A DNA stretch of 64,000 nucleotides. Source: Siphonodentalium dalli. Lineage: Eukaryota; Mollusca; Scaphopoda; Gadilida; Siphonodentaliidae. Below the pieces are notes generated by a model. It had not been told where the DNA came from. It did not search any database and was given only the letters and a program-made list of their open reading frames with translations. A program made the translations under genes and the position numbers. Below are positions 1 to 63,490 of the stretch, piece by piece (position 1 is the stretch's first letter; each line of letters starts with the position of its first letter). The DNA is taken from the NCBI GenBank assembly GCA_032622095.1, contig CP136066.1, positions 204,622,978-204,686,977 of the forward strand, read 5' to 3'.

Positions 1-67
1 ACATCAGAGAAATGGCGAGGTTACGGTAGTCTCCAGAAAGATCGGAGTGAAGGTCATCTATACAATT
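1..67 (-). CDS. Annexin module M5 exon b, cut by the window edge
   Basis: The first 67 nt of the exon read NCIDDLHSDLSGDYRNLAIS and then LM. The acceptor is ttcag. The rest of the exon, and whatever modules follow, lie to the left of the window. Confidence 0.87.
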
Positions 68-263
68 CTGAAATTTATCAAGCGATTTAGCACTACAAGC
101 TGTACAGGTACATAACAGTGTGGATCAAAAATCAGAATGTCATACAAAAAAAACTTAAATTTAAATTTCAATCTTTATCTGAGTTGATGACCCATTTAGA
201 TATTTCAAGGAGCATACATTTAAGTAGGAAATTAGAATATGCCCTTACACATTAAAGAACCTA

Positions 264-970
264 CCTGTTTGTATTTGTCTTGGTATTAAATAGAATGCTA
301 ACCTGTTTGTATTTGTCTTGGTATTAAATAGAATGCTAACCTGTTTGTATTTGTCTTGGTATTTAATAGAATGCTAACCTGTTTGTATTTGTCTTGGTAT
401 TAAATAGAATGCTAACCTGTTTGTATTTATCTTGGTAATAAATAGAATGCTAACCTGTTTGTATTTGTCTTGGTATTAAATAGAATGCAAACCTGTTTGT
501 ATTTGTCTTGGTATTAAATAGAATGCTAACCTGTTTGTATTTGTCTTGGTATTAAATAGAATGCTAACCTGTTTGTATTTGTCTTGGTATTTAATAGAAT
601 GCTAACCTGTTTGTATTTGTCTTGGTATTAAATAGAATGCTAACCTGTTTGTATTTGTCTTGGTATTAAATAGAATGCTAACCTGTTTGTATTTATCTTG
701 GTAATAAATAGAATGCTAACCTGTTTGTATTTGTCTTGGTATTAAATAGAATGCTAACCTGTTTGTATTTGTCTTGGTATTAAATAGAATGCTAACCTGT
801 TTGTATTTGTCTTGGTATTAAATAGAATGCTAACCTGTTTGTATTTGTCTTGGTATTAAATAGAATGCTAACCTGTTTGTATTTGTCTTGGTATTATATA
901 GAATGCTAACCTGTTTGTATTTGTCTTGGTATTAATAGAATGCTAACCTGTTTGTATTTGTCTTGGTATT
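264..970. repeat. 38-bp minisatellite across the M5 exon a donor (about 18 units)
   Basis: Units read cctgtttgtatttgtcttgg and then tattaaatagaatgctaa on the plus strand. On the coding strand each unit carries the last 23 bases of exon a (AATACCAAGACAAATACAAA then CAG) followed by donor GTTAGC. Single-base and one-base-deleted variants occur. Confidence 0.95.
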
Positions 971-1377
971 TCTCCCTGATGTTTTGTCTCTGAGAGTTAT
1001 TGTTCCTGGATATGACATCTATAATAGTATCCTCATCAGTTCCCAGCCCCTTCATAGCTTTATACAGCTTATCCCAGTCCTCATTAGAATCATCCGGCTT
1101 CTCATCCGCCTTCTCTTCTTCTTTCTTTTGTTCCTGGTTTTGTTCCTTCTCTTGTTTGTCCTTTTTATCATCCTTCTTTCCTTTTGGTGACTTTTCTCGT
1201 TTCTTGTCCTTTTCTTCATCTTTGTCCTTTTTCTTGTCTTTCTCTTTCGGCTCTTCCTTTTGTTGCTCAGCAGATATCGGCACGATGGCAGCAGCTGTTT
1301 GAGAATCATTTTTATCTTCCTTTTTGTCAGGAGATTTTTCTTTCTTTGGAGATTTCTTCACATCTCTTTCCGGTATT
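948..1377 (-). CDS. Annexin module M5 exon a (KE-rich linker and repeat 1 first half)
   Basis: The 430-nt exon encodes 143 residues. The linker starts IPERDVKKSPKKEKSPDKKE, has an uncharged patch (SQTAAAIVPISAEQQ) and then KE-rich sequence ending EKADEKPDDSNE. Repeat 1 then matches the other modules (DWDKLYKAMKGLGTDED). The acceptor is ctag. The donor CAG|gttagc is copied about 18 times in the following array. Confidence 0.88.
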
Positions 1378-1407
1378 CTAGAGAACAAATAAAAAAAAAT
1401 ATTTTAA

Positions 1408-1660
1408 CGCTTTCATGACACGAGCAGCGCTGGTGCAGCATTAAAGATCCTGTGCCAGTACATTCTCTTATATATGCAAATCTCCCATAGGAGCCTCACA
1501 TATATATGAGAATCCACTGGCTAATACAAGGTTAAGGTTAATATTGTTAGGCCAATGTATTCTCTTGTAGTCTCTCCCTATTGGAGACTCACATAAAAAA
1601 AGAGAATGCATTGGCACAGGGTTTTCACAAAATTGCAGGAAGCTCCAGTCATGGAAGGGT
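1408..1660. mobile_element. Decayed TTAA-2 MITE
   Basis: The left end is TTAA then CGCTTTCATGAC, and the right end is GTCATGGAAGGGT. Inside are two damaged copies of the inverted module starting GCCAATG(C/T)ATTCTCTT. It lies 30 bp upstream of the M5 exon a acceptor. Confidence 0.65.
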
Positions 1661-1977
1661 CAATCAGGGTCCAGTCTAGAGAATTCAAATTGGGAGAACT
1701 CTCTTCTCCCTATTAGATTAAATGGGAGAAATGGATCAGGGAGAAGTCATAAATGCTGAAGTTCAATTTACTCCTTAATATCTCCTTTATGTGATCCAAC
1801 AAGTATTATGCAATACAAGAGACCATTTATAATACCAATATAATGAGTAAGTACCCCAGTATAGTCAATAAATACACTTCAAATATGCTGTTTTGAAATA
1901 TGCAAATTGGTATATGAGAGAGGTCACTTTTCCTTAGGACAATAATAGGGAGAAGTGGCACAATTTAGTGAAAAGAT

Positions 1978-2352
1978 GTCTCCCAAGTCACCCTCTTGAC
2001 AGGTCCCTGTCTCCCAAGTCACCCTCTTGACAGGTCCCTGTCTCCCAAGTCGCCCTCTAGGCTAGTCCCTGTCTCCCAAGTCGCCCTCTAGGCTGGTCCC
2101 TGTCTCCCAAGTCGCCCTCTAGGCTGGTCCCTGTCTCCCAAGTCACCCTCTTGACAGGTCCCTGTCTCCCAAGTCGCCCTCTAGGCTGGTCCCTGTCTCC
2201 CAAGTCGCCCTCTAGGCTGGTCCCTGTCTCCCAAGTCACCCTCTAGGCTGGTCCCTGTCTCCCAAGTCACCCTCTAGACTGGTCCCTGTCTCCCAAGTCG
2301 CCCTCTAGGCTGGTCCCTGTCTCCCAAGTCGCCCTCTAGGCTGGTCCCTGTC
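1978..2352. repeat. 31-bp minisatellite (about 12 units)
   Basis: The unit begins GTCTCCCAAGTCGCCCTCTA and continues GGCTGGTCCCT, with a CACCCTCTTGACA variant. It is GC-rich compared with its surroundings and lies inside the intron between M4 exon h and M5 exon a. Confidence 0.93.
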
Positions 2353-2687
2353 TAGAACCCTTTCTATACTAAATGAATTCTCCAACTCAGTTATAAAAGT
2401 ATAAATTGAAATGGTCTATTATTTATCTGGATGGGTATTCAGGAAAGATCGGAAATTTACTTTTTAATTTTCTTTTAAACAGCCTGGTCAAACATTTTTG
2501 CAAAATTTTCTGTTAGAAATATTGGATTTGAATAACGAAAATGATTTGTTTTGGTTTCTAGACTATGTTTTCCAGATTTTGAAAAATAAAATAAAAAATT
2601 AGACTCCCTCTGTCACCTATAAATTGAGATCTAATTGCCTGATAATGCAGATATTTAAATTTAATGGCATTACAGAGTAACACTTAC

Positions 2688-2809
2688 TTGTCGCCAATAA
2701 CAGCCAGCAGTAGTTTCCTGTAATCTCCACTCGTTTCCGATTTTATTTCTTTTATCACATTCTTCTCATGGAGTTCCTCATATTTAGCACCAACTGCTGG
2801 AAGATCCTT
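2688..2809 (-). CDS. Annexin module M4 exon h (repeat 4 end, module border)
   Basis: The 122-nt exon reads KDLPAVGAKYEELHEKNV to LLLAVIGD and then AA|gtaagt. Tyr replaces the Phe of the other three copies; otherwise it is almost unchanged. Confidence 0.9.
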
Positions 2810-4846: not shown

Positions 4847-4959
4847 TTCCTCCCTTGAAACCACGACTCTTGACAGTAGGTCTTCTTTTGTACCCAGACC
4901 TTGGAAGGAATCTTGAAGCTTGTTAGCATAGTGAGCTGGCTTGTCATCATTAAGTTTTA
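4847..4959 (-). CDS. Annexin module M4 exon g (repeat 4 first half)
   Basis: The 113-nt exon starts LKLNDDKPAHYANKLQDSFQ and continues GLGTKEDLLSRVVVSREE. The GxGT loop is intact. It has a cag acceptor and a GAGGAA|gtaagt donor. A half-copy of a foldback MITE ends 14 bp past the donor. Confidence 0.9.
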
Positions 4960-5914: not shown

Positions 5915-5990
5915 ACAGTGATGAATACGCATCCTTTAATTCTCCTTTGTAACATAATGGTATATTATCTTCAATGGTAGCACCACTCAA
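5915..5990 (-). CDS. Annexin module M4 exon f (repeat 3 second half)
   Basis: The 76-nt exon encodes LSGATIEDNIPLCYKGELKD and continues AYSSL plus T. It has a cag acceptor and a CTGT|gtaagt donor. T plus TA of exon g makes Leu. Confidence 0.87.
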
Positions 5991-7064: not shown

Positions 7065-7166
7065 CTCTTTGTATTTTTCAAACACCTGTTTTCGTTGTTC
7101 AGGATTATTCTTTGTGAGCACTTCTCTTAGAGCTTTATCCTTTGTATTGATTTGAGTTTTCTCGTC
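7065..7166 (-). CDS. Annexin module M4 exon e (repeat 3 first half)
   Basis: The 102-nt exon starts DEKTQINTKDKALREVLTKN and ends VFEKYKE, with a cag acceptor and an AAAGAG|gtaagc donor. INTKDK replaces the calcium loop of repeat 3. Confidence 0.89.
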
Positions 7167-7794: not shown

Positions 7795-8419
7795 CTTATA
7801 AATTCAGTGACCAATGCCTACCATATAAATTCAGTGACCAATGCCCCCTTATAAATTCAGCTATACCAACGCCTACCTTATAAATTCAGCTACCAATGCC
7901 TACCTTATCAATTCAGCTACCAACGCCTACCTTATCAATTCAGCTACCAATGCCTACCATATAAATTCAGTGACCAATGCCCCCTTATAAATTCAGCTAT
8001 ACCAACACCTACCTTATAAATTCAGCTACCAATGCCTACCTTATCAATTCAGCTACCAACGCCTACCTTATCAATTCAGCTACCAATGCCTACCATTTAA
8101 ATTCAGTGACCAATGCCCCCTTATAAATTCAGCTATACCAACGCCTACCTTATAAATTCAGCTACCAATGCCTACCTTATCAATTCAGCTACCAACGCCT
8201 ACCTTATCAATTCAGCTACCAATGCCTACCTTATAAATTCAGCTACCAACGTCTACCTTATAAATTCAGCTACCAATGCCCACCCTATAAATTCAGCTAC
8301 CAACGTCTACCTTATAAATTCAGCTATCAATGCCTACCTTATAAATTCAGCTACCAATGCCCACCCTATAAATTCAGCTACTAATGCCCACCTTATAATT
8401 TCAGCTACCAACGCCTACC
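7795..8419. repeat. 27-bp minisatellite ending on the M4 exon d donor (about 23 units)
   Basis: The unit is TACCAATGCCTACCTTATAA then ATTCAGC. On the coding strand it contains AATTTATAAG|GTAGGC, the last 10 bases of exon d and its donor. Variants include AACGCC and a GTGACCAATGCCCCC type that forms a higher-order block around 7,795-8,130. The unit length keeps a plus-strand frame open at 8,113-8,472; I do not call it a gene. Confidence 0.93.
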
Positions 8420-8564
8420 TTATAAATTTTCTTGGCGTCTTTCTCAGCCTGACCAGCATCCACTTTATCTGATAATTTCGGCTCATTGAGCACCGACATC
8501 AATATATCATTTAATTCTCCTTTCGTCTTCTTCTTGATATCACCAGTCATATCTTTCTTGTAAT
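8419..8564 (-). CDS. Annexin module M4 exon d (repeat 2 end, lead into repeat 3)
   Basis: The 146-nt exon starts DYKKDMTGDIKKKTKGELND and ends EKDAKKIYK, with a tag acceptor and a TATAAG|gtaggc donor. The final 10 exon bases and the donor recur in the adjoining 27-bp array. The intron reads GTA GGC GTT GGT AGC TGA in frame, so non-splicing would terminate the chain. Confidence 0.89.
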
Positions 8565-9573: not shown

Positions 9574-9607
9574 CTTCTTTGTACTTGTCTTTGACCTTTT
9601 CCAAATC
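9574..9607 (-). CDS. Annexin module M4 exon c (repeat 2 middle)
   Basis: The 34-nt exon encodes DLEKVKDKYKE plus one base. It has a cag acceptor and a GAAG|gtatga donor. Confidence 0.83.
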
Positions 9608-10759: not shown

Positions 10760-13700
10760 AGGGCAGATGAGAGTATATCATGACAGCCTTTATACCTCTG
10801 GTTCATTCATCATGAATTAATGACAGATGAGAGTATATCGTGACAGCCTTTATACCTCTGGTTCATTCATCATGAATTAATGACAGATGAGAGTATATCA
10901 TGACAGCCTTTATACCTCTGGTTCATTCATCATGAATTAATGACAGATGAGAGTATATCGTGACAGCCTTTATACCTCTGGTTCATTCATCATGAATTAA
11001 TGACAGATGAGAGTATATAATGACAGCCTTTATACCTCTGGTTCATTCATCATGAATTAATGACAGATGAGAGTATATCATGACAGCCTTTATACCTCTG
11101 GTTCATTCATCATGAATTAATGACAGATGAGAGTATATCATGACAGCCTTTATACCTCTGGTTCATTCATCATGAATTAATGACAGATGAGAGTATATCG
11201 TGACAGCCTTTATACCTCTGGTTCATTCATCGTGAATTAATGACAGATGAGAGTATATCGTGACAGCCTTTATACCTCTGGTTCATTCATCGTGAATTAA
11301 TGACAGATGAGAGTATATCGTGACAGCCTTTATACCTCTGGTTCATTCATCATGAATTAATGACAGATGAGAGTATATCGCGACAGCCTTTATACCTCTG
11401 GTTCATTCATCATGAATTAATGACAGATGAGAGTATATCATGACAGCCTTTATACCTCTGGTTCATTCATCATGAATTAATGACAGATGAGAGTATATCA
11501 TGACAGCCTTTATACCTCTGGTTCATTCATCGTGAATTAATGACAGATGAGAGTATATCATGACAGCCTTTATACCTCTGGTTCATTCATCATGAATTAA
11601 TGACAGATGAGAGTATATCATGACAGCCTTTATACCTCTGGTTCATTCATCATGAATTAATGACAGATGAGAGTATATCATGACAGCCTTTATACCTCTG
11701 GTTCATTCATCGTGAATTAATGACAGATGAGAGTATATCATGACAGCCTTTATACCTCTGGTTCATTCATCATGAATTAATGACAGATGAGAGTATATCA
11801 TGACAGCCTTTATACCTCTGGTTCATTCATCATGAATTAATGACAGATGAGAGTATATCATGACAGCCTTTATACCTCTGGTTCATTCATCGTGAATTAA
11901 TGACAGATGAGAGTATATCATGACAGCCTTTATACCTCTGGTTCATTCATCATGAATTAATGACAGATGAGAGTATATCATGACAGCCTTTATACCTCTG
12001 GTTCATTCATCATGAATTAATGACAGATGAGAGTATATCATGACAGCCTTTATACCTCTGGTTCATTCATCATGAATTAATGACAGATGAGAGTATATCA
12101 TGACAGCCTTTATACCTCTGGTTCATTCATCATGAATTGATGACAGATGAGAGTATATCATGACAGCCTTTATACCTCTGGTTCATTCATCATGAATTAA
12201 TGACAGATGAGAGTATATCATGACAGCCTTTATACCTCTGGTTCATTCATCATGAATTAATGACAGATGAGAGTATATCATGACAGCCTTTATACCTCTG
12301 GTTCATTCATCATGAATTAATGACAGATGAGAGTATATCATGACAGCCTTTATACCTCTGGTTCATTCATCGTGAATTAATGACAGATGAGAGTATATCA
12401 TGACAGCCTTTATACCTCTGGTTCATTCATCGTGAATTAATGACAGATGAGAGTATATCATGACAGCCTTTATACCTCTGGTTCATTCATCGTGAATTAA
12501 TGACAGATGAGAGTATATCATGACAGCCTTTATACCTCTGGTTCATTCATCATGAATTAATGACAGATGAGAGTATATCGTGACAGCCTTTATACCTCTG
12601 GTTCATTCATCATAAATTAATGACAGATGAGAGTATATCATGACAGCCTTTATACCTCTGGTTCATTCATCATGAATTAATGACAGATGAGAGTATATCA
12701 TGACAGCCTTTATACCTCTGGTTCATTCATCATGAATTGATGACAGATGAGAGTATATCATGACAGCCTTTATACCTCTGGTTCATTCATCATGAATTAA
12801 TGACAGATGAGAGTATATCATGACAGCCTTAATACCTCTGGTTCATTCATCATGAATTAATGACAGATGAGAGTATATCGTCACAGCCTTTATACCTCTG
12901 GTTCATTCATCCTGAATTAATGACAGATGAGAGTATATCGTGACAGCCTTTATACCTCTGGTTCATTCATCGTGAATTAATGACAGATGAGAGTATATCA
13001 TGACAGCCTTTATACCTCTGGTTCATTCATCGTGAATTAATGACAGATGAGAGTATATTATGACAGCCTTTATACCTCTGGTTCATTCATCGTGAATTAA
13101 TGACAGATGAGAGTATATCGTGACAGCCTTTATACCTCTGGTTCATTCATCGTGAATTAATGACAGATGAGAGTATATCGTGACAGCCTTTATACCTCTG
13201 GTTCATTCATCATGAATTAATGACAGATGAGAGTATATCATGACAGCCTTTATACCTCTGGTTCATTCATCATGAATTAATGACAGATGAGAGTATATCG
13301 TGACAGCCTTTATACCTCTGGTTCATTCATCATGAATTAATGACAGATGAGAGTATATCATGACAGCCTTTATACCTCTGGTTCATTCATCATGAATTAA
13401 TGACAGATGAGAGTATATCATGACAGCCTTTATACCTCTGGTTCATTCATCATGAATTAATGACAGATGAGAGTATATCATGACAGCCTTTATACCTCTG
13501 GTTCATTCATCATGAATTAATGACAGATGAGAGTATATCATGACAGCCTTTATACCTCTGGTTCATTCATCATGAATTAATGACAGATGAGAGTATATCA
13601 TGACAGCCTTTATACCTCTGGTTCATTCATCATGAATTAATGACAGATGAGAGTATATCATGACAGCCTTTATACCTCTGGTTCATTCATCATGAATTAA

Positions 13701-14470
13701 CGACAGATGAGAGTATATCGTGACAGCCTTTATACCTCTGGTTCATTCATCATGAATTAATGACAGATGAGAGTATATCATGACAGCCTTTATACCTCTG
13801 GTTCATTCATCATGAATTAATGACAGATGAGAGTATATCGTGACAACCTTTATACCTCTGGTTCATTCATCATGAATTAATGACAGATGAGAGTATATCA
13901 TGACAGCCTTTATACCTCTGGTTCATTCATCATGAATTAATGACAGATGAGAGTATATCATGACAGCCTTTATACCTCTGGTTCATTCATCATGAATTAA
14001 TGACAGATGAGAGTATATCGTGACAGCCTTTATACCTCTGGTTCATTCATCATAAATTAATGACAGATGAGAGTATATCATGACAGCCTTTATACCTCTG
14101 GTTCATTCATCATGAATTAATGACAGATGAGAGTATATCATGACAGCCTTTATACCTCTGGTTCATTCATCATGAATTAATGACAGATGAGAGTATATCA
14201 TGACAGCCTTTATACCTCTGGTTCATTCATCATGAATTAATGACAGATGAGAGTATATCATGACAGCCTTTATACCTCTGGTTCATTCATCATGAATTAA
14301 TGACAGATGAGAGTATATCATGACAGCCTTTATACCTCTGGTTCATTCATCATGAATTAATGACAGATGAGAGTATATCGTGACAGCCTTTATACCTCTG
14401 GTTCATTCATCATGAATTAATGACAGATGAGAGTATATCGTGACAGCCTTTATACCTCTGGTTCATTCTT
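10760..14470. repeat. 60-bp minisatellite across the M4 exon b donor (about 61 units)
   Basis: The unit starts GTTCATTCATCATGAATTAA and continues TGACAGATGAGAGTATATCA, TGACAGCCTTTATACCTCTG. On the coding strand it contains ATGAATGAACCAGAG|GTATAAAG, which is the end of exon b plus its donor. The array is very regular: nearly all differences are A/G changes at two positions, and no unit changes length over 3.7 kb. It fills most of the intron between exons b and c. Confidence 0.97.
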
Positions 14471-14623
14471 CATAACAACATCCACGAGGATTTCCTCCCG
14501 GTTTTTTCCTGTAACGGCCTGATTAACACAGTAAGCATCATACTCGACTGGCTCCAACATCAGGGAAATGGCGAGGTTACGGAAGTCTCCAGAAAGGTCA
14601 GATTGAAGGTCATCTATACAGTT
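14456..14623 (-). CDS. Annexin module M4 exon b (repeat 1 end, repeat 2 start)
   Basis: The 168-nt exon (56 residues) starts NCIDDLQSDLSGDFRNLAIS and ends DVVMKNEPE. The acceptor is acag and the donor is CCAGAG|gtataa. Repeat 2 has VTGKNREEIL in place of the calcium loop. The last 17 exon bases, with one mismatch, plus the donor are repeated about 61 times in the 60-bp array downstream. Read-through would stop at once, because the intron starts GTA TAA in frame. Confidence 0.9.
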
Positions 14624-17260: not shown

Positions 17261-17693
17261 CTGTTTGTATTTGTCTTGGTATTTCTCCCGGATGTTTTGT
17301 CTCTGAGAGTTATTGTTCCTGGATATGACATCTATAATAGTATCCTCATCAGTTCCCAGCCCCTTCATTGCTTTATACAGCTTATCCCAGTCCTCATTAG
17401 AATCATCCGGCTTCTCATCCGGCTTCTCTTCTTCTTTCTTTTGTTCCTGTATTTCTTCTTTCTGTTGCTCTTGAACAAGTGATTTCTCTTTCTTATTTTT
17501 ATCTTTATCTTTTTTGTCTTTTTCGTTCTCTTTTTTGTCATCTTTCTCTTTTTTGTCTTTTTCCTTCTCTTTTTTGTCATCTTTCTCTTGTTGTACTTGT
17601 TGCTGCTGTACAGGTATTATTGTTTGAGCTGGTTCCTCCTTACTCTCCGTTTTTGCAGGTTTCTCCTTCTTTGGTGGATCTCGTTCCTCAATT
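17261..17693 (-). CDS. Annexin module M4 exon a (KE-rich linker and repeat 1 first half)
   Basis: The 433-nt exon encodes 144 residues. The linker starts IEERDPPKKEKPAKTESKEE, has a Gln-rich patch (VQQQQVQQEK) and then 11-residue DDKKEKEKDKK-type repeats. It ends EKPDEKPDDSNE. Repeat 1 with intact GLGTDED follows and ends DKYKQ. The acceptor is acag and the donor is CAG|gtcggt. This is the only exon a whose donor is not followed by the 38-bp array. Confidence 0.89.
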
Positions 17694-17747
17694 CTGTAAT
17701 TATTAAAGACATATTCAGGGTTTCAGACCTTCAGTTACAACAATTAA

Positions 17748-18051
17748 CCCTTTCATGACGGGTATTGTGCTGGTTCAGCATTAACCCTTTCAGTGCCAAG
17801 TCCGATTTTTGTATCAACCAGTATTTCCTTGATCATTTTTCAAATTTATTGATTATATGTGATAAATTGAGGGAAAGAGCTCTAACAGTACAGTCCCATA
17901 GGGACCCCCACATATATAAGAGAATGAACTGGCTTACAAAGACAAGGTAAATATTGTTAGGCTAATGTATTCTCTTATATATGTGAGGCTCCTATGGGAG
18001 ACTCGCATATATAGGAGAATGCATTGGCACAAGAGTTTTTGCAAAAAAGGG
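17748..18051. mobile_element. TTAA-2 MITE with TTAA-3 sequence inside
   Basis: The left end is TTAACCCTTTCATGACGGG at 17,744. A second TTAACCCTTTCAGTGCCAAG starts 38 bp further in, and the right end is ...AAAAAGGGTTAA at 18,055. Two palindromic modules, one damaged, lie between. Confidence 0.65.
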
Positions 18052-18070
18052 TTAACACAGTTCTAATTAA

Positions 18071-18437: not shown

Positions 18438-18441
18438 TTAA

Positions 18442-18909: not shown

Positions 18910-18913
18910 TTAA

Positions 18914-44808: not shown

Positions 44809-44957
44809 CTTGTATATCTTGATAGCATCCTTCTCCGCCTGTTCCTCATCAGTCTCGTCGCCATCGCTCTTATGTTTGTTCAGTGCACTCATAAGGATAT
44901 CATTCACCTCTCCCTTCGTGCCCTTCTTTACGTCTTTATCCATGTCCTTCTTGTATG
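44809..44957 (-). CDS. Annexin module M2 exon d (repeat 2 end, lead into repeat 3)
   Basis: The 149-nt exon encodes AYKKDMDKDVKKGTKGEVND and ends AEKDAIKIYK. It has a tag acceptor and an AAG|gtaacg donor. It is one codon longer than d in M1, M3 and M4, with the extra residue in the acidic KSDGDETDEE segment between repeats 2 and 3. It is the most divergent d exon. Confidence 0.88.
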
Positions 44958-45698: not shown

Positions 45699-45732
45699 CT
45701 TCATGGTACTTCACTCCAATCTTGTCCAAATC
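45699..45732 (-). CDS. Annexin module M2 exon c (repeat 2 middle)
   Basis: The 34-nt exon encodes DLDKIGVKYHE plus one base, with a gcag acceptor and a GAAG|gtagat donor. It is separated from exon b by an intron that is almost wholly minisatellite. Size and phase are identical to the other c exons. Confidence 0.83.
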
Positions 45733-45739: not shown

Positions 45740-48700
45740 GAAGTAATTTATGCAAATGATTCAGGCAGATGAAAAATATAACCCACATCTTTAATGATTC
45801 AGGCAGATGAAAAATATAACCCACATCTTTAATGATTCAGGCAGATGATAAATATAACCCACATCTTTAATGATTGAGGCAGATGATAAATATAACCCAC
45901 ATCTTTAATTATTCAGGCATATGATAAATATAACCCACATCTTTAATGATTCAGGCAGATGATAAATGTAACCCACATCTTTAATTATTAAGGCAGATGA
46001 TAAATATAACCCACATCTTTAATTATTCAGGCAGATGATAAAAATAACCCACATCTTTAATGATTTAGGCAGTTGATAAATATAACCCACATCTTTAATG
46101 ATTCAGGCAGATGATAAATGTATCCCACATCTTTAATGATTCAGGCAGATGATAAATATAACCCACATCTTTAATTATTCAGGCAGATGATAAAAATAAC
46201 CCACATCTTTAATTATTCAGGCATATGATAAATATATCCCACATCTTTAATGATTTAGGCAGTTGATAAATATAACCCATATCTTTAATTATTCAGACAG
46301 ATGAAGATAAATATAACCCACATCTTTAATTATTCAGGCATATGATAAATATAACCCACATCTTTAATGATTCAGTCAGTTGATAAATGTAACCCACATC
46401 TTTAATTATTCAGGCAGATGATAAATGTAACCCACATCTTTAATTATTCAGGCAGATGATAAATATAACCCACATCTTTAATTATTCAGGCATATGATAA
46501 ATATAACCCACATCTTTAATTATTCAGGCAGTTGATAAATGTAACCCACATCTTTAATTATTCAGGCAGTTGATAAATGTAACCCACATATTTAATGATT
46601 TAGGCAGTTGATAAATGTAACCGACATCTTTAATGATTTAGGCAGTTGATAAATGTAACACACATCTTTAATGATTTAGGCAGTTGATAAATGTAACCCA
46701 CATCTTTAATGATTTAGGCAGTTGATAAATGTAACACACATCTTTAATGATTCAGGCAGATGATAAATATAACCCACATCTTTAATGATTGAGGCAGATG
46801 ATAAATATAACCCACATCTTTAATTATTCAGGCATATGATAAATATAACCCACATCTTTAATGATTCAGGCAGATGATAAATGTAACCCACATCTTTAAT
46901 TATTCAGGCAGATGATAAATATAACCCACATCTTTAATGATTCAGGCAGATGATAAATATAACCCACATCTGTAATGATTTAGGCAGTTGATAAATATAA
47001 CCCACATCTTTAATGATTTAGGCAGTTGATAAATATAACCCACATCTTTAATTATTCAGGCAGATGATAAAAATAACCCACATCTTTAATGATTTAGGCA
47101 GTTGATAAATATAACCCACATCTTTAATGATTCAGGCAGATGATAAATGTATCCCACATCTTTAATGATTCAGGCAGATGATAAATATAACCCACATCTT
47201 TAATTATTCAGGCAGATGATAAAAATAACCCACATCTTTAATTATTCAGGCATATGATAAATATATCCCACATCTTTAATGATTTAGGCAGTTGATAAAT
47301 ATAACCCATATCTTTAATTATTCAGACAGATGAAGATAAATATAACCCACATCTTTAATTATTCAGGCATATGATAAATATAACCCACATCTTTAATGAT
47401 TCAGTCAGTTGATAAATGTAACCCACATCTTTAATTATTCAGGCAGATGATAAATGTAAGCCACATCTTTAATTATTCAGGCAGATGATAAATATAACCC
47501 ACATCTTTAATTATTCAGGCATATGATAAATATAACCCACATCTTTAATTATTCAGGCAGTTGATAAATGTAACCCACATCTTTAATTATTCAGGCAGTT
47601 GATAAATGTAACCCACATATTTAATGATTTAGGCAGTTGATAAATGTAACCGACATCTTTAATGATTTAGGCAGTTGATAAATGTAACACACATCTTTAA
47701 TGATTTAGGCAGTTGATAAATGTAACCCACATCTTTAATGATTTAGGCAGTTGATAAATGTAACACACATCTTTAATGATTTAGGCAGTTGATAAATGTA
47801 ACCGACATCTTTAATGATTTAGGCAGTTGATAAATGTAACACACATCTTTAATGATTTAGGCAGTTGATAAATGTAACACACATCTTTAATGATTTAGGC
47901 AGTTGATAAATGTAACCCACATATTTAATGATTTAGGCAGTTGATAAATGTAACCGACATCTTTAATGATTTAGGCAGTTGATAAATGTAACACACATCT
48001 TTAATGATTTAGGCAGTTGATAAATGTAACCCACATCTTTAATGATTTAGGCAGTTGATAAATGTAACACACATCTTTAATGATTTAGGCAGTTGATAAA
48101 TGTAACACACATCTTTAATGATTCAGGCAGTTGATAAATGTAACACACATCTTTAATGATTTAGGCAGTTGATAAATGTAACACACATCTTTAATGATTT
48201 AGGCAGTTGATAAATGTAACACACATCTTTAATGATTTAGGCAGTTGATAAATGTAACCCACATCTTTAATGATTTAGGCAGTTGATAAATGTAACACAC
48301 ATCTTTAATGATTTAGGCAGTTGATAAATGTAACACACATCTTTAATGATTTAGGCAGTTGATAAATGTAACACACATCTTTAATGATTCAGGCAGTTGA
48401 TAAATGTAACACGCATCTTTAATGATTGAGGCAGTTGATAAATGTAACACACATCTTTAATGATTCAGGCAGTTGATAAATGTAACACACATCTTTAATG
48501 ATTGAGGCAGTTGATAAATGTAACACACATCTTTAATGATTCAGGCAGTTGATAAATGTAACACACATCTTTAATGATTGAGGCAGTTGATAAATGTAAC
48601 ACACATCTTTAATGATTCAGGCAGTTGATAAATGTAACACACATCTTTAATGATTGAGGCAGTTGATAAATGTAACACACATCTTTAATGATTTAGGCAG

Positions 48701-49895
48701 TTGATAAATGTAACACACATCTTTAATGATTTAGGCAGTTGATAAATGTAACCCACATCTTTAATTATTCAGGCAGATGATAAATGTAACCCACATCTTT
48801 AATTATTCAGGCAGATGATAAATATAACCCACATCTTTAATTATTCAGGCATATGATAAATATAACCCACATCTTTAATTATTCAGGCAGTTGATAAATG
48901 TAACCCACATCTTTAATTATTCAGGCAGTTGATAAATGTAACCCACATATTTAATGATTTAGGCAGTTGATAAATGTAACCGACATCTTTAATGATTTAG
49001 GCAGTTGATAAATGTAACACACATCTTTAATGATTTAGGCAGTTGATAAATGTAACCCACATCTTTAATGATTTAGGCAGTTGATAAATGTAACACACAT
49101 CTTTAATGATTTAGGCAGTTGATAAATGTAACACACATCTTTAATGATTCAGGCAGTTGATAAATGTAACACACATCTTTAATGATTTAGGCAGTTGATA
49201 AATGTAACACACATCTTTAATGATTTAGGCAGTTGATAAATGTAACACACATCTTTAATGATTTAGGCAGTTGATAAATGTAACCCACATCTTTAATGAT
49301 TTAGGCAGTTGATAAATGTAACACACATCTTTAATGATTTAGGCAGTTGATAAATGTAACACACATCTTTAATGATTTAGGCAGTTGATAAATGTAACAC
49401 ACATCTTTAATGATTCAGGCAGTTGATAAATGTAACACACATCTTTAATGATTCAGGCAGTTGATAAATGTAATACACATCTTTAATGATTCAGGCAGTT
49501 GATAAATGTAACACACATCTTTAATGATTCAGGCAGTTGATAAATGTAACACACATCTTTAATGATTTAGGCAGTTGATAAATGTAACACACATCTTTAA
49601 TGATTCAGGCAGTTGATAAATGTAACACACATCTTTAATGATTCAGGCAGTTGATAAATGTAACACACATCTTTAATGATTTAGGCAGTTGATAAATGTA
49701 ACACACATCTTTAATGATTCAGGCAGTTGATAAATGTAACACACATCTTTAATGATTTAGGCAGTTGATAAATGTAACACACATCTTTAATGATTCAGGC
49801 AGTTGATAAATGTAACACACATCTTTAATGATTCAGGCAGTTGATAAATGTAACACACATCTTTAATGATTCAGGCAGTTGATAAATGTAACACA
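45740..49895. repeat. 38-bp minisatellite abutting the M2 exon b donor (about 109 units)
   Basis: The unit is AACACACATCTTTAATGATT then CAGGCAGTTGATAAATGT, unrelated to the exon a 38-bp unit. The coding-strand unit starts GTGTGTTA exactly at the exon b donor. The array shows higher-order structure: rare variants such as a GAAG insertion (46,301 and 47,330) and ACCCACATATTT (46,582 and 47,611) recur 1,029 bp apart. It fills all but a few bases of the intron to exon c. Confidence 0.97.
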
Positions 49896-49896
49896 C

Positions 49897-50061
49897 CTCT
49901 GGTGACTTATTCAGCAGCACATCAATGAGGACATCGTAATCTTTGCCTTTTGCAGCTTTGTTTACACAGAAGGCATCAAACTCCACTGGTTCAAGCATCA
50001 GACCAATCGCTAGATTACGGAAATCTCCTGATAAGTCAGAGTCAAGGTCATCAATACAGTT
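49897..50061 (-). CDS. Annexin module M2 exon b (repeat 1 end, repeat 2 start)
   Basis: The 165-nt exon (55 residues) starts NCIDDLDSDLSGDFRNLAIG and ends DVLLNKSPE, with donor CCAGAG|gtgtgt. The Asp in DSDLSG is the acidic ligand partnering GLGT of exon a. Repeat 2 has AKGKDYDVL instead of a GxGT loop, so its calcium site looks lost. It is one codon shorter than the b exons of M3 and M4. The donor directly abuts a 4.1-kb minisatellite. Confidence 0.89.
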
Positions 50062-50502
50062 CTGAAAAATATATATATTGATGGGTTAGTTGATGTCATC
50101 ATGATATATATATGTCCTCTGCGTGAAGTTAAGATGGTTATATTTCAAAGCACCAAATGCCACTTCAATGCTCTATGTTAGCAAATTGGTGCTAAGATAA
50201 GATACAATTTGTCTTGTAGCCATTATCAACAAAGTCAATGTGATGGATATGAAATAACACAAGGAATTAATGGCTGATTTAATGAATTTGGGTGCTTTTA
50301 AAGTGTTTTTAATATGATATTAATGTTTTCCCCTTTCAGTAGAGTTTTGCTATGTGATTCTGTTTTTTCTCATTTACCATCCTATGTTTCATAGAGTTAT
50401 TGCCATGGGTCCAATATACAAGTCAAAGAGCTATGATGATGTTAAAATGCTCACAGTTCACAAATGAGACTAATTATTCTTAATGAAATTTAAGATAATC
50501 TA
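50062..50502. other. Intron stretch, nothing recognised
   Basis: This is the 3' end of the intron between M2 exons a and b, outside the array. Confidence 0.45.
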
Positions 50503-53500
50503 CCTGTTTGTATTTGTCTTGGTATTAAATAGAATGCTAACCTGTTTGTATTTGTCTTGGTATTAAATAGAATGCTAACCTGTTTGTATTTATCTTGGTA
50601 TTAAATAGAATGCTAACCTGTTTGTATTTGTCTTGGTATTAAATAGAATGCTAACCTGTTTGTATTTGTCTTGGCATTTAATAGAATGCTAACATGTTTG
50701 TATTTGTCTTGGTATTAAATAGAATGCTAACCTGTCTGTATTTGTCTTGGTATTAAATAGAATGCTAACCTGTTTGTATTTATCTTGGTATTATATAGAA
50801 TGCTAACCTGTTTGTATTTGTCTTGGTATTAATAGAATGCTAACCTGTTTGTATTTGTCTTGGTATTAATAGAATGCTAACCTGTTTGTATTTGTCTTGG
50901 TATTAATAGAATGCTAACCTGTTTGTATTTGTCTTGGCATTAAATAGAATGCTAACCTGTTTGTATTTGTCTTGGTATTAAATAGAATGCTAACCTGTTT
51001 GTATTTATCTTGGTATTATATAGAATGCTAACCTGTTTGTATTTGTCTTGGTATTAAATAGAATGCTAATCTGTTTGTATTTGTCTTGGTATTAAATAGA
51101 ATGCTAACCTGTTTGTATTTGTCTTGGTATTAATAGAATGCTAACCTGTTTGTATTTATCTTGGTATTATATAGAATGCTAACCTGTTTGTATTTGTCTT
51201 GGTATTATATAGAATGCTAACCTGTTTGTATTTGTCTTGGTATTAAATAGAATGCTAACCTGTTTGTATTTATCTTGGTATTAAATAGAATGCTAACCTG
51301 TTTGTATTTGTCTTGGTATTAAATAGAATGCTAACCTGTTTGTATTTGTCTTGGTATTAAATAGAATGCTGACCTGTTTATATTTGTCTTGGTATTAATA
51401 GAATGCTAACCTGTTTGTATTTGTCTTGGTATTAAATAGAATGCTAACCTGTTTGTATTTGTGTTGGTATTAAATAGAATGCTAACCTGTTTGTATTGTC
51501 TTGGTATTAAATAGAATGCTAACCTGTTTGTATTTGTCTTGGTATTAATAGAATGCTAACCTGTTTGTATTTGTCTTGGTGTTAAATAGAATGCTAACCT
51601 GTTTGTATTTGTCTTGGTATTAAATAGAATGCTAACCTGTTTGTATTTGTCTTGGTATTAAATAGAATGCTAGCATGTTTGTATTTGTCTTGGTATTAAA
51701 TAGAATGCTAACCTGTTTGTATTTATCTTGGTATTAAATAGAATGCTAACCTGTTTGTATTTGTCTTGGTATTAAATAGAATGCTAACATGTTTGTATTT
51801 GTCTTGGTATTAAATAGAATGCTAACCTGTTTGGATTTGTCTTGGTATTAAATAGAATGCTAACATGTTTGTATTTGTCTTGGTATTAAATAGAATGCTA
51901 ACCTGTTTGTATTTGTCTTGGTATTAAATAGAATGCTAACCTGTTTGTATTTGTCTTGGTATTAAATAGAATGCTAACCTGTTTGTATTTGTCTTGGTAT
52001 TAAATAGAATGCTAACATGTTTGTATTTGTCTTGGTATTAAATAGAATGCTAACCTGTTTGTATTTGTCTTGGTATTAAATAGAATGCTAACCTGTTTGT
52101 ATTTGTCTTGGTATTAAATAGAATGCTAACCTGTTTGTATTTATCTTGGTATTAAATAGAATGCTAACCTGTTTGTATTTGTCTTGGTATTAAATAGAAT
52201 GCTAACCTGTTTGTATTTGTCTTGGTATTAAATAGAATGCTAACCTGTTTGTATTTGTCTTGGTATTAAATAGAATGCTAACCTGTTTGTATTTGTCTTG
52301 GTATTAAATAGAATGCTAACATGTTTGTATTTGTCTTGGTATTAAATAGAATGCTAACCTGTTTGTATTTGTCTTGGTATTAAATAGAATGCTAACATGT
52401 TTGTATTTGTCTTGGTATTAAATAGAATGCTAACCTGTTTGTATTTGTCTTGGTATTAAATAGAATGCTAACCTGTTTGTATTTATCTTGGTATTAAATA
52501 GAATGCTAACCTGTTTGTATTTGTCTTGGTATTAAATAGAATGCTAACCTGTTTGTATTTGTCTTGGTATTAAATAGAATGCTAACATGTTTGTATTTGT
52601 CTTGGTATTAAATAGAATGCTAACCTGTTTGTATTTGTCTTGGTATTAAATAGAATGCTAACATGTTTGTATTTGTCTTGGTATTAAATAGAATGCTAAC
52701 CTGTTTGTATTTGTCTTGGTATTAAATAGAATGCTAACCTGTTTGTATTTGTCTTGGTATTAAATAGAATGCTAACCTGTTTGTATTTGTCTTGGTATTA
52801 AATAGAATGCTAACCTGTTTGTATTTGTCTTGGTATTAAATAGAATGCTAACCTGTTTGTATTTGTCTTGGTATTAAATAGAATGCTAACCTGTTTGTAT
52901 TTGTCTTGGTATTAAATAGAATGCTAACCTGTTTGTATTTGTCTTGGTATTAAATAGAATGCTAACCTGTTTGTATTTGTCTTGGTATTAAATAGAATGC
53001 TAACCTGTTTGTATTTGTCTTGGTATTAAATAGAATGCTAACCTGTTTGTATTTGTCTTGGTATTAAATAGAATGCTAACATGTTTATATTTGTCTTGGT
53101 ATTAAATAGAATGCTAACCTGTTTGTATTTGTCTTGGTATTAAATAGAATGCTAACATGTTTGTATTTGTCTTGGTATTAAATAGAATGCTAACCTGTTT
53201 GTATTTGTCTTGGTATTAAATAGAATGCTAACCTGTTTGTATTTATCTTGGTATTAAATAGAATGCTAACCTGTTTGTATTTGTCTTGGTATTAAATAGA
53301 ATGCTAACCTGTTTGTATTTGTCTTGGTATTAAATAGAATGCTAACATGTTTGTATTTGTCTTGGTATTAAATAGAATGCTAAACTGTTTGTATTTGTCT
53401 TGGTATTAAATAGAATGCTAACATGTTTGTATTTGTCTTGGTATTAAATAGAATGCTAACCTGTTTGTATTTGTCTTGGTATTAATAGAATGCTAACCTG

Positions 53501-54014
53501 TTTGTATTTGTCTTGGTGTTAAATAGAATGCTAACCTGTTTGTATTTGTCTTGGTATTAAATAGAATGCTAACCTGTTTGTATTTGTCTTGGTATTAAAT
53601 AGAATGCTAGCATGTTTGTATTTGTCTTGGTATTAAATAGAATGCTAACCTGTTTGTATTTGTCTTGGTATTAAATAGAATGCTAACCTGTTTGTATTTG
53701 TCTTGGTATTAAATAGAATGCTAACATGTTTGTATTTGTCTTGGTATTAAATAGAATGCTAACCTGTTTGTATTTGTCTTGGTATTAAATAGAATGCTAA
53801 CATGTTTGTATTTGTCTTGGTATTAAATAGAATGCTAACCTGTTTGTATTTGTCTTGGTATTAAATAGAATGCTAACCTGTTTGTATTTGTCTTGGTATT
53901 AAATAGAATGCTAACCTGTTTGTATTTGTCTTGGTATTAAATAGAATGCTAACCTGTTTGTATTTGTCTTGGTATTTAATAGAATGCTAACCTGTTTGTA
54001 TTTGTCTTGGTATT
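50503..54014. repeat. 38-bp minisatellite across the M2 exon a donor (about 92 units)
   Basis: This is the same donor-containing unit as at 264 and 34,162. A CATG variant (ACATGTTAGC on the coding strand) is scattered through the array. A block marked by ggtgttaaat followed by tagcatg recurs about 1,937 bp apart (51,581 and 53,518), roughly 51 units. Confidence 0.97.
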
Positions 54015-54457: not shown

Positions 54458-54787
54458 CTATAATATTTCAGAATGTTATAACTCCACTAAACATGTCACA
54501 CCGAGCTCATAATAGCAGGTGTTCAGGTTCGCATGGCGGTAAATATCTGTCAAGTTTCAAAAATTTCTATGTCAAAAAAGGGGTTTATAAAAAATTTACT
54601 GAAAAATGTAGGAATACAAACTCAGACAAAGTTGCATTCATGAATTACGAACAGATGGAAAAGCTGATTCCTATATACCCCATAACTTCATTACGGGAGG
54701 CGATGGGTTGGAAATGCACAAAAATCTTATAAACTTTCCGTATTTTTCAGATCAACAAGCGGAAAGTAATTATTGTTAGATGCTTAC
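54458..54787. other. Intron between modules M1 and M2, nothing recognised
   Basis: This is a 330-bp intron, the shortest module-joining intron. It has no stop-and-restart structure: no poly(A) signal plus promoter pair is evident, which supports one continuous gene. Confidence 0.5.
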
Positions 54788-54909
54788 TTGTCTCCGATAA
54801 CTGCCAGCAGTAGTTTCCTGTAATCTCCACTCGTTTCTGATTTTATTTCTTTTATCACATTCTTCTCATGAAGCTCCTCAAACTTAGCACCAACTGCTGG
54901 TAGATCCTT
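54788..54909 (-). CDS. Annexin module M1 exon h (repeat 4 end, module border)
   Basis: The 122-nt exon starts KDLPAVGAKFEELHEKNV and ends LLLAVIGD plus AA, with donor gtaagca. The acidic residue of the repeat 4 calcium site (KSETSGDY) is present at the usual distance from GLGT. The AA overhang is completed by A at the start of the M2 linker exon, giving Lys. The chain therefore continues where a single-core annexin would stop. Confidence 0.9.
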
Positions 54910-57241: not shown

Positions 57242-57354
57242 TTCTTCTCTGGACACGACGACCCGACTGAGCAAATCTTCGTTGGTTCCCAGACCACTGC
57301 ATGAGTCAGCAAAATTATCAGCACAGTGAGCAGGAGGGTCTTCACTGGACTTCA
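57242..57354 (-). CDS. Annexin module M1 exon g (repeat 4 first half)
   Basis: The 113-nt exon runs from LKSSEDPPAH to RVVVSREE. It contains CSGLGTNEDLLSR, an intact GxGT calcium loop of annexin repeat 4. Borders are a tag acceptor and a GAAGAA|gtaagt donor. It has Cys residues (HCADNFADSC) where M3 and M4 have HYANKLQDSF, so it is one of the more divergent g exons. Confidence 0.88.
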
Positions 57355-58585: not shown

Positions 58586-58661
58586 ATAGAGCCATATAGG
58601 CTTGTTTCTCCGATCCCGAGTAAGTCTGTTTGATAGCTTCCTCAATCGGGACACCACTCAT
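58586..58661 (-). CDS. Annexin module M1 exon f (repeat 3 second half)
   Basis: The 76-nt exon encodes MSGVPIEEAIKQTYSGSEKQ and continues AYMAL plus one base. It has a cag acceptor and a TCTAT|gtgagt donor. It corresponds to the helix C/D-E part of repeat 3. The initial ATG is not a start codon: exon f of M3 and M4 begins with Leu and that of M2 with Ile at the same place. Confidence 0.86.
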
Positions 58662-59602: not shown

Positions 59603-59701
59603 TTCTTTGTGGTTGTTAAAGATTTTCTGCCGCTGATCAGGGTTAGACATCACAGCTTCTCGGAATGACTTGTCCTTCTTGTTTATTGGAGTTTTTTCAT
59701 C
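59603..59701 (-). CDS. Annexin module M1 exon e (repeat 3 first half)
   Basis: The 99-nt exon encodes 33 residues (DEKTPINKKDKSFREAV... NNHKE). The donor is AAGAA|gtgagt and the acceptor is cag. It is one codon shorter than exon e of M2, M3 and M4 (34 residues), with one Asn missing before PDQRQ. INKKDK stands where calcium-binding annexin repeats carry GxGTDE, so the type II calcium site of repeat 3 is absent. Confidence 0.86.
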
Positions 59702-61128: not shown

Positions 61129-61132
61129 TTAA

Positions 61133-61587: not shown

Positions 61588-61754
61588 TTAACCCAGGTTC
61601 AAACATTGCCTTTATGCTCAAGTGAGTACTTTTACCAAAATATAATCTGATTGGACACATTTCTAATGAAAGTCTACAATACAGCTATATCTAAGTATCT
61701 AAGGCCAAAGGTTCCATTCCTGGCTCTGATGCTTTGTCTTGGTTGGGTCATGTA

Positions 61755-62172
61755 TGAGGGTATCACCCCCCCCCCCCCCCCCTTTTCGGTACGCGGGATT
61801 CAGGGTGTTTTGAAGCCGTACGCGGGATTCATACCCCCGAATTAACTGGTATTCAGGTTCAAGCAAAACATCTTGGGCACAGGTTTTGATGGCGCAAAAT
61901 AATATTTTTGTGCTAGTTATCTGTATGAATGAGTGGGTAGAATAGCTTCTTGGGCATATTTGACCACTATGCCATCATAAAGTATCATTAATCGTATCAT
62001 AACGGCTTCATAACGCCCATAACATGACCGGCATCAATTTGTATGTCATTTATCGCATATTATTTCTTAACATGTATTCAGGATTCACCCCCCCAAAATT
62101 AACTGGTATTCAGGATTCAACCCCAAAATTAACTGGTATTCAGGATTCAGGGGGGAGGGGGTGATACCCTCA
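61755..62172. mobile_element. C-rich ended foldback element
   Basis: The ends TGAGGGTATCACCCCC and GGGGGTGATACCCTCA are flanked by TGTA on both sides. A run of 17 to 18 C lies at the left. Inside are repeated GGTATTCAGGATTCA units. Confidence 0.7.
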
Positions 62173-62322
62173 TGTATACTAAATACAACATTATAAACAT
62201 ATATATAGAGTTTCATGACAAATTTCCTATCTGATGTTGATTTAATACAAAATGAAACATTTGGGAATTATCAATATACCAAATCTTGTATATTATCTTG
62301 ACTTTTTATTTAAGAAACTTAC

Positions 62323-62468
62323 CTTGTATATTTTCTTGGCTGTTTTTTCAGCCGCACCCTCATCAACCTTATCAGACGGCTTCTTGCCACTGAGAACTCC
62401 CATCAGTATATCATTCAATTCTCCTTTGGTTTTCTTTTTTACATCAGATGCCATGTCTTTCTTGTAAT
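62323..62468 (-). CDS. Annexin module M1 exon d (repeat 2 end, lead into repeat 3)
   Basis: The 146-nt exon starts DYKKDMASDVKKKTKGELND and ends KKIYK, with a tag acceptor and an AAG|gtaagt donor. The KTKGELNDILM stretch is the helix D/E end of annexin repeat 2. The following Asp/Glu/Lys-rich segment (EGAAEKTAKKIYK) matches the usual start of repeat 3. It is close in sequence to exons d of M3 and M4. Confidence 0.88.
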
Positions 62469-62758
62469 CTAGAAACATATTTCACTTTCTTATGAAAATA
62501 AACACAGACCATGCAAAGGATAAGTTGAAATGATAAAAGTTATTACATTAGGTATATATAACTACAGTTCATTTTGCAATAAAACATAAATCTCTCTAAC
62601 TCAATTAATGCCACGTCTGACCTGATCAATCCAATTATAACGTACATATTGTTAATACGCGTACATATGTATTGTAGTGACTTTCTAGATGGATGATTGA
62701 AGATGGAAGAGTTTTGAAGTGGCAAACTCATTTTAGAGTCTGAAATTGGTCAAAACTA

Positions 62759-62948
62759 TAGTAATGCCCTAAATAATCAACTTCTTAACCACAGCAGAAT
62801 TAAGGGTAATTTTTCAGGATTTAGTCGGAAATATGGCTTGTTGCCATTCATCGGCAAGCTCTCACTGAGCCTTATTTCCTTTCTAAATCCTGAAAAATTA
62901 CCCATAATTCTGCTGTGGTTAAGGAGTCGTTTATTTAGGGCATTACTG
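62759..62948. mobile_element. TA-1 foldback MITE
   Basis: The ends TAGTAATGCCCTAAATAATC and GGGCATTACTG form a palindrome around CTCTCACTGAG, with TA at the right. Confidence 0.76.
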
Positions 62949-62950
62949 TA

Positions 62951-63456
62951 GTATTATTGGTAATGACATGCATGCAAAGTCAATTTCTCATCTCTCAGGC
63001 CAAACATTTTGAAAAAGCGGTTATTAATAAATTATTTTTACTTTGGGGCTCACACCAACTAATCATTCCACCCCTGGATCTGCTAGATCTGCGTTTAATA
63101 TCAGTTACCCATGGTCATTATTACCCAAACAAATGTCCTCAAAAGTTAGTTGATCGACTCCATATGGTTTATTTCACCCAATAAAGTATTGTTGACACAT
63201 TTTTTAATTAGTTCGCAGATGCAACTCATCACGACAGTCATATATTTAATCAGAAATTTGAATCAGGAAACAGTTATATTTTATCTCAGTTCACGTTCTC
63301 GGTAGTTTCAATAAACATACGACAATTATTTCATACTGATTATAATTTTTTCCGACATATAAGTCCTCCCTCCATCACTGATTCAGAAAAAAATTGTCTG
63401 AGATTAAAATAAATTTGCTTGGAACAAGGATTGTGCAAGGCTAACTAATGACATAC
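62951..63456. other. Intron stretch, nothing recognised
   Basis: This is intron between M1 exons c and d. The short open frames have no family match. Confidence 0.45.
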
Positions 63457-63490
63457 CTTCTTTGTATTTGTCCTTAATTGGTTCCAACTC
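63457..63490 (-). CDS. Annexin module M1 exon c (repeat 2 middle)
   Basis: This 34-nt exon reads ELEPIKDKYKE plus one base. It is bounded by a cag acceptor and a GAAG|gtatgt donor. It covers helix C of annexin repeat 2 and joins in phase to exon d, where G+AT makes Asp. It is the most 5' exon in the window. M1 exons a and b must lie beyond the right edge, because no match to them is seen between 63,491 and 64,000. Confidence 0.8.

What the first reader, a model, noticed from the sequence alone, without database searches (positions are those of the whole stretch)
1..63490. A single gene encoding at least five annexin cores in tandem
Seen: 32 exons with consistent phases join in one frame. Each complete module is a multiple of three (1,227, 1,158 and 1,194 nt). 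Each exon h ends GAC AA with a donor and each linker exon restores the Lys codon. Known: most annexins have four repeats and annexin A6 has eight. Inference: this gene encodes a chain of at least 18 to 20 annexin repeats, extending past both window edges. That would be an unusual, perhaps new, membrane-bridging or multivalent phospholipid-binding architecture.
Basis: partly seen in the sequence, partly recalled or inferred. Interest (0 to 1): 0.9.

Follow-up and report, generated by a model that had tools for sequence, protein, structure and literature searches.

The report
One gene chaining many annexin cores
An animal gene about 240,000 bases long appears to string some fourteen or fifteen copies of a membrane-binding protein (annexin) into one giant chain, where known annexins have one copy or, in annexin A6, two; no transcript has been seen yet.

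Summary
In the same genome (9 contigs, 2.23 Gb) the array runs on: 15 annexin cores over 239 kb. Modules 6-15 join into one open frame of about 3,880 codons with a terminal stop. The stop that follows exon h in 13 of 14 junctions is what a phase-2 GTRA donor spells; the best open donor is that phase-2 site in 14 of 14, +5 G is kept in 9 of 10 independent introns, one donor (GTATGT) carries no stop, 13 of 14 junction introns are 330-2,247 bp, and no linker has a Met. Separate genes are therefore unlikely. Cores are old, under purifying selection, and 12 of 13 complete ones keep Ca2+ sites in repeats 1 and 4. Best reading: one gene for a poly-annexin of about 6,100 residues, a multivalent Ca2+-dependent membrane binder. 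Not shown: any transcript, the start exon, whether module 1 belongs, the species. A 2024 review calls eight repeats (annexin A6) unique (PMC10882027, passages).

The parts
63457..63490 (-). module 8 exon c (repeat 2)
   Evidence: spliced alignment
62323..62468 (-). module 8 exon d (repeat 2-3)
59603..59701 (-). module 8 exon e (repeat 3)
58586..58661 (-). module 8 exon f (repeat 3)
57242..57354 (-). module 8 exon g (repeat 4, Ca2+ site GLGT)
54788..54909 (-). module 8 exon h (repeat 4 end, ...GDK, phase-2 donor GTAAGC)
54458..54787 (-). core-to-core intron 8-9, 330 bp, no AATAAA or ATTAAA
53992..54457 (-). module 9 exon a (charged linker 107 aa + repeat 1 start)
50502..54014 (.). 38-bp minisatellite, 93 copies, spanning the 5' splice site of module 9 exon a
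49897..50061 (-). module 9 exon b (repeat 1-2)
45755..49900 (.). 38-bp minisatellite, 109 copies, starting at the 3' end of module 9 exon b
45699..45732 (-). module 9 exon c
44809..44957 (-). module 9 exon d
40581..40682 (-). module 9 exon e
38616..38691 (-). module 9 exon f
37593..37705 (-). module 9 exon g
36166..36287 (-). module 9 exon h
35639..36165 (-). core-to-core intron 9-10, 527 bp, no AATAAA or ATTAAA
35242..35638 (-). module 10 exon a (linker 84 aa + repeat 1 start)
34163..35264 (.). 38-bp minisatellite, 29 copies, spanning the 5' splice site of module 10 exon a
33421..33588 (-). module 10 exon b
32593..32626 (-). module 10 exon c
31429..31574 (-). module 10 exon d
30055..30156 (-). 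module 10 exon e
28491..28566 (-). module 10 exon f
21222..21334 (-). module 10 exon g
19941..20062 (-). module 10 exon h
17694..19940 (-). core-to-core intron 10-11, 2,247 bp
17261..17693 (-). module 11 exon a (linker 96 aa + repeat 1 start)
14456..14623 (-). module 11 exon b
10764..14473 (.). 60-bp minisatellite, 62 copies, spanning the 5' splice site of module 11 exon b
9574..9607 (-). module 11 exon c
8419..8564 (-). module 11 exon d
7065..7166 (-). module 11 exon e
5915..5990 (-). module 11 exon f
4847..4959 (-). module 11 exon g
2688..2809 (-). module 11 exon h
1378..2687 (-). core-to-core intron 11-12, 1,310 bp
948..1377 (-). module 12 exon a (linker 95 aa + repeat 1 start)
263..970 (.). 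38-bp minisatellite, 19 copies, spanning the 5' splice site of module 12 exon a
1..67 (-). module 12 exon b, continues 101 bases beyond the window (C6:204,622,877-204,623,044)

Best explanation
One very large animal gene on the minus strand of contig C6 encodes a poly-annexin: fourteen or fifteen four-repeat annexin cores in one chain of about 6,100 residues, joined by highly charged Lys/Glu-rich linkers of 84-205 residues (9 and 11 residues before the last two cores). A complete module is eight exons and, inside the chain, symmetric (phase 2 at both ends), so tandem duplication added cores without breaking the frame, and skipping a module would keep it too. Shown from sequence: exon structure, frame, splice-site signals, purifying selection, Ca2+-site motifs. 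Inferred: one transcript and one polypeptide. Inferred mechanism: at raised Ca2+ each core docks on acidic phospholipid through the type II sites of repeats 1 and 4 while the linkers act as spacers, so that one molecule binds a membrane at many points or bridges membranes with high avidity, like annexin A6 extended several-fold. The confidence is for one transcription unit with at least twelve cores.
For: Modules 6-15 (80 exons) join into one frame of about 3,880 codons whose only stop is the terminal one (the aligner penalises stops). At every one of 14 exon h ends the best open donor is the phase-2 site. In 10 independent junction introns GT is 10/10, +3 purine 10/10, +4 A 9/10, +5 G 9/10, then random; 9/10 G has P about 2e-6. 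The stop after exon h is what any phase-2 GTRA donor spells; module 13 has GTATGT and no stop there. 13 of 14 junction introns are 330-2,247 bp; the median of all 14 is 1,015 bp against 1,252 bp for 98 introns inside modules. The phase-2 linker acceptor is the best-scoring of all phases in 9 of 14, and 11 of 14 linkers then begin K-I-x-E. No Met in any of 15 linkers. The last core ends in LLEIMKNL-stop without a donor. dN/dS 0.00-0.12 per exon group. PF00191 repeats; annexin VI is the best PDB match, residues 5-294 of 296. GxGT-38-D/E in repeats 1 and 4 of 12 of 13 complete modules.
Against: No transcript was available. The start exon was not found; module 1's linker has a phase-0 acceptor, and 11.6 kb of the 23.2-kb intron after module 1 was not read, so module 1 could be a separate gene. 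I first picked linker acceptors among phase-2 sites only; over all phases the chosen site ranks 1st in 9, 2nd in 3, 3rd in 1 and only 10th in module 2. Donors of module 2 (GTAAAA) and module 14 (GTAATA) are weak. In 13 of 14 junctions the unspliced reading stops where annexins usually end, which separate genes would also give. AATAAA occurs in 8 of 14 junction introns. In the 9-10 intron three ATGs share a phase-2 donor of score 2.4, within the range of the h donors (0.3-3.7). Exons e and f of module 2 and c of module 5 were not fetched.
Confidence: 0.83

Rival explanations
1. A tandem array of separate four-repeat annexin genes, each ending at the stop after exon h and each with its own first exon in the short gap before the linker exon.
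For: In 13 of 14 junctions the codon after exon h is TAA or TGA, at the usual annexin C-terminus. AATAAA lies in 8 of 14 gaps. In the 9-10 gap a possible ATG exon has a donor of score 2.4. Tandem annexin gene families are common (recalled).
Against: Gaps of 330 and 527 bp without AATAAA or ATTAAA. No ATG exon of up to 240 nt with a phase-2 donor of score 3 or more in any of 14 gaps, the first being half read; without threshold, in the five gaps checked, the best was 2.4 in the 9-10 gap and 0.3 or less in the other four. +5 G is kept in 9 of 10 independent donors, although a stop codon does not need it. Module 13 has no stop at that place. No Met in linkers.
Confidence: 0.09
2. An operon of annexin cistrons, resolved by spliced-leader trans-splicing at the linker acceptors.
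For: Short intercistronic gaps and acceptors before the linkers; trans-splicing occurs in several animal phyla (recalled).
Against: No Met in 15 of 15 linkers, so a trans-spliced cistron would start inside repeat 1. A leader-borne AUG would be out of frame with the phase-2 acceptors (inference). Donor signals persist after exon h in modules 1-14.
Confidence: 0.03
3. A single locus used as an ensemble: cores are joined in variable number by module skipping, and some transcripts stop in a retained h intron, giving annexins of one to fifteen cores. (Compatible with the best explanation.)
For: Every complete module from 3 to 14 is a multiple of three. Intron retention at h would give an annexin-like C-terminus in 13 of 14 junctions.
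Against: No direct evidence; both features also follow from simple phase-2 tandem duplication.
Confidence: 0.25
4. Only modules 2-15 form the gene; module 1 is a neighbouring annexin gene.
For: Module 1 is 36-38% identical to the others, has a phase-0 linker acceptor and a 23-kb gap after it; the acceptor chosen for the next linker ranks only 10th.
Against: Its last exon has a phase-2 donor GTAAGG of score 2.9, the best open one there; it has the same Lys/Glu-rich linker type.
Confidence: 0.4

Closest known systems
Annexin A6 (annexin VI)
   Same: Best PDB match over residues 5-294 of a 296-residue core (1m9i, 1avc); more than one four-repeat core in a chain.
   Different: Two cores (eight repeats) against fourteen or fifteen here; the long Lys/Glu-rich linkers and the near-identical edge exons are not described for A6 in the passages I read.
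Four-repeat animal annexins (A4, A5, A7, annexin XII; the last from Hydra, recalled)
   Same: Same repeats and type II Ca2+ motif (motif recalled); full-length sequence match.
   Different: One core per protein; here repeats 2 and 3 of the complete cores have lost the GxGT loop, except repeat 2 of module 1.
Multi-domain bacterial annexins (PMC3894181, passages read)
   Same: Varying numbers of annexin domains per protein.
   Different: Remotely similar domains, such as three or five per protein in the passages; not an array of complete cores.

Membership tests
Annexin family | four repeats of about 70 residues (PF00191) per core | tested here: met
   4 stretches in each of 3 cores; 8 in modules 9+10, 7 in modules 14+15
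Annexin family | type II Ca2+ site GxGT-(38)-D/E (motif recalled) | tested here: met
   repeats 1 and 4 in 12 of 13 complete modules (1, 3, 4, 6-13, 15; module 1 also repeat 2); module 14 repeat 1 only; modules 2 and 5 not fully read
Annexin family | Ca2+-dependent binding to acidic phospholipid | not testable with these tools
   needs protein
Annexin family | core fold (curved disc of helical repeats) | not testable with these tools
Annexin A6 type (two cores, eight repeats) | exactly eight repeats in one chain | tested here: not met
   14-15 cores in the gene model
Tandem array of separate annexin genes | own start exon and terminator per core | tested here: inconclusive
   no strong ATG exon found in the gaps, but one candidate of score 2.4 in the 9-10 gap; no polyadenylation hexamer in 2 of 14 gaps, AATAAA in 8; donors kept; cDNA needed

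The most novel reading that the evidence does not exclude
The full-length product is really made: one polypeptide of about 6,100 residues with 15 annexin cores and 60 annexin repeats on charged spacers, a giant membrane tape or tether with dozens of Ca2+-triggered contacts, whose first and last core exons are kept near-identical by gene conversion as interchangeable connectors.
Probability: 0.45. Interest if true: 0.82.

Novelty: new variant of a known kind. Interest (0 to 1): 0.72.

Why it matters
A 2024 review calls annexin A6, with eight repeats, unique among annexins of four (PMC10882027, passages). A gene with 56-60 repeats would show that annexin cores can be polymerised genetically, as repeats are in titin or spectrin (recalled), and offers a natural test of what multivalency does for Ca2+-triggered membrane binding, bridging and repair. 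It also shows old cores whose edge exons are homogenised, and minisatellites that begin at 5' splice sites.

Tried and rejected
Species: the genome (2,226,750,531 bases, 9 contigs) fits by size and chromosome number the scorpion Hadrurus arizonensis (PMC11126328, abstract and passages), but PF00379 and PF00372, which an arthropod should have (recalled), gave no match; PF14830, PF16915 and PF01353 also gave none. For all five the control genomes gave none either, so absence is not proven. A muscle myosin exon pair matches best, in the PDB, entries that I recall as scallop and squid myosins (one search prints no species), which hints at a spiralian. A chiton was considered from recall only.

Literature: searches showed no annexin with more than eight repeats in the titles and abstract starts they listed; one search was a mixed search on minisatellites and concerted evolution. 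Passages seen: PMC2805694, PMC3894181, PMC10882027, PMC12162462. Most subscription journals are not held, and no database of animal proteins other than the PDB could be searched.

Stiff single-helix linkers: E-to-K (i,i+4) pairs clearly exceed shuffles only in linkers 4-8 (19-22 against 13-16), so a stiff rod is not claimed.

Other Pfam matches, taken as chance: PF14766 in modules 9+10 (17.5 bits, cut-off 28.8) and PF15963 in modules 14+15 (31.4 bits, cut-off 31), which lies on repeat 1 of module 15.

The exon-wise dN/dS used the corrected table.

The bacterial promoter scan of a junction says nothing about an animal gene.
Full report
Where it lies. The window is C6:204,622,978-204,686,977 of an unnamed eukaryote genome of 2,226,750,531 bases in nine contigs. 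A Pfam annexin search of that genome listed 50 matches, 21 of them in one minus-strand cluster on C6. A search with one core protein (E up to 1) listed 93 matches, 89 of them in that cluster (one, an inverted exon copy, on the plus strand), between C6:204,579,006 and 204,817,822. I fetched the region in pieces; about 61.5 kb between 204,716,901 and 204,796,900 was not read.

Anatomy. A spliced-alignment script, refined, gave 15 modules. A complete module has exons a to h: a (linker plus start of repeat 1), b, c (34 nt), d, e, f, g, h, with donor phases 0,0,1,0,0,1,0 and 2. Module lengths are 1,386 (3), 1,287 (4), 1,254 (6, 7, 8), 1,227 (9), 1,158 (10), 1,194 (11), 1,191 (12), 1,242 (13), 933 (14) and 937 nt with the stop (15); module 1 has 1,286 nt from a phase-0 acceptor. 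In module 2 exons b and c are fused and e and f were not fetched; in module 5 c was not fetched. The 116 located exons have AG before and, except the last, GT after them; the script allows only AG and GT (or GC) and penalises stops, so this is partly by construction. Modules 6-15 join into one frame of about 3,880 codons whose only stop is the terminal one, after KTLLEIMKNL. Coding sequence located: 18,163 nt, about 6,050 residues, or about 6,125 with the unread exons. The model spans C6:204,578,991-204,818,206 (239 kb).

One gene or many. The serious rival is a row of ordinary annexin genes, because in 13 of 14 junctions the codon after exon h is TAA or TGA, where annexins usually end. But a donor GTRA used in phase 2 always reads as a stop when it is not spliced. 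Four tests separate the readings. First, the donors: within 40 bases of the end of exon h the best open GT is the phase-2 site in 14 of 14 modules. Of 12 junction introns (modules 3-14) two near-duplicates (after modules 7 and 12) were set aside; in the other ten GT is 10/10, +3 purine 10/10, +4 A 9/10, +5 G 9/10, and from +6 on the columns are mixed; nine G of ten has P about 2e-6 at the local G frequency. Module 13 has GTATGT, a donor without an in-frame stop. Second, the acceptors: I first searched phase-2 sites only. Scoring all phases, the chosen site ranks 1st in 9 of 14 linkers, 2nd in three, 3rd in one and 10th in module 2. With these sites 11 of 14 linkers begin K-I-x-E after splicing. 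Third, 13 of 14 junction introns are 330-2,247 bp and fully read; those after modules 8 and 9 hold neither AATAAA nor ATTAAA, while AATAAA occurs in 8 of 14. An ATG-exon scan found no candidate with donor score 3 or more in any of the 14, the first being half read; as the h donors themselves score 0.3-3.7, I repeated it without threshold in five gaps: the best candidate scored 2.4, in the 9-10 gap, and 0.3 or less in the other four. Fourth, none of the 15 linkers has a Met, which excludes starts inside linkers and speaks against trans-spliced cistrons. The terminal exon h (module 15) has a stop and no donor. I put one transcription unit with at least 12 cores at 0.83. Module 1, and the splice into module 2, are less sure.

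Age and selection. Among ten complete modules (3, 4, 6-13; 45 pairs) mean synonymous divergence is near saturation in exons c-g (dS 2.3-2.5, single values capped at 3) and 1.3 in b, but 0.065 in exon a and 0.39 in h; dN/dS is 0.00-0.12. The last 144 nt of exon a are at least 97.2% identical in 55 pairs of modules 3-13, and identity falls towards background past the intron borders. The cores are therefore old, and the exons that flank each core-to-core joint are homogenised, most simply by gene conversion confined to exons because the introns no longer match (inference). A core tree puts 3, 4, 6, 7 and 8 together (support 0.999) and 1, 14 and 15 apart (0.987).

Function. A core aligns with annexin VI over residues 5-294 of 296. 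Repeats 1 and 4 keep GxGT followed after 38 residues by D or E in 12 of 13 complete modules; module 1 keeps it in repeat 2 as well, module 14 in repeat 1 only; modules 2 and 5 were not fully read. Linkers 1-13 are 84-205 residues, 54-71% charged. Inference: a chain of Ca2+-triggered phospholipid binders on charged spacers, giving avidity and bridging that a single annexin lacks. The modules' symmetric phases would also allow frame-neutral skipping; whether that is used is unknown.

Comparison. Annexin A6 has eight repeats, called unique in a 2024 review (PMC10882027, passages). The listings of my searches showed nothing longer. The cores are ordinary annexin; the architecture is the novelty.

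In passing. Minisatellites in this gene start at exon 3' ends and include the 5' splice site: 21 of 115 exon 3' ends carry such an array, 0 of 116 exon 5' ends do. Many of the exon-a cases share descent. In ten exon ends of other loci (five myosin, five annexin) none did (three more loci in that call were not oriented, two of them from this gene, and are left out), so whether this is general is open.

Noticed in passing
window 263-970, 10764-14473, 34163-35264, 45755-49900, 50502-54014; C6:204,583,111-204,817,714: Minisatellites (27-136 bp units) begin at exon 3' ends and repeat the end of the exon together with its 5' splice site: 21 of 115 exon 3' ends, 0 of 116 exon 5' ends; 0 of 10 exon ends at other loci.
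   Followed up: partly
exons a and h of modules 3, 4, 6-13: Synonymous divergence 0.065 in exon a and 0.39 in h against 1.3-2.5 elsewhere: homogenisation limited to the two exons flanking each joint.
   Followed up: partly
C6:204,705,590-204,705,888: In module 6 the end of exon h is repeated as a 78-bp unit with 3.8 copies; the intron after module 12 starts with a similar, decayed sequence.
   Followed up: no
C6:204,718,899-204,719,069 (+): An inverted copy of exon d, 70% identical, inside module 5.
   Followed up: no
window, many places, e.g. 55511-55636 and 56797-57190: A short interspersed repeat recurs on both strands (six-frame self-comparison, output cut).
   Followed up: no
C4:274.2-275.5 Mb, also 158, 172, 221, 223, 289 and 292 Mb: Many myosin head exon matches; some lie in open frames of 850-1,550 codons.
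   Followed up: no
C6:204,473,560-204,495,733 (-): Other annexin exons 80-100 kb beyond the array's end, probably a separate gene with its own stop.
   Followed up: no
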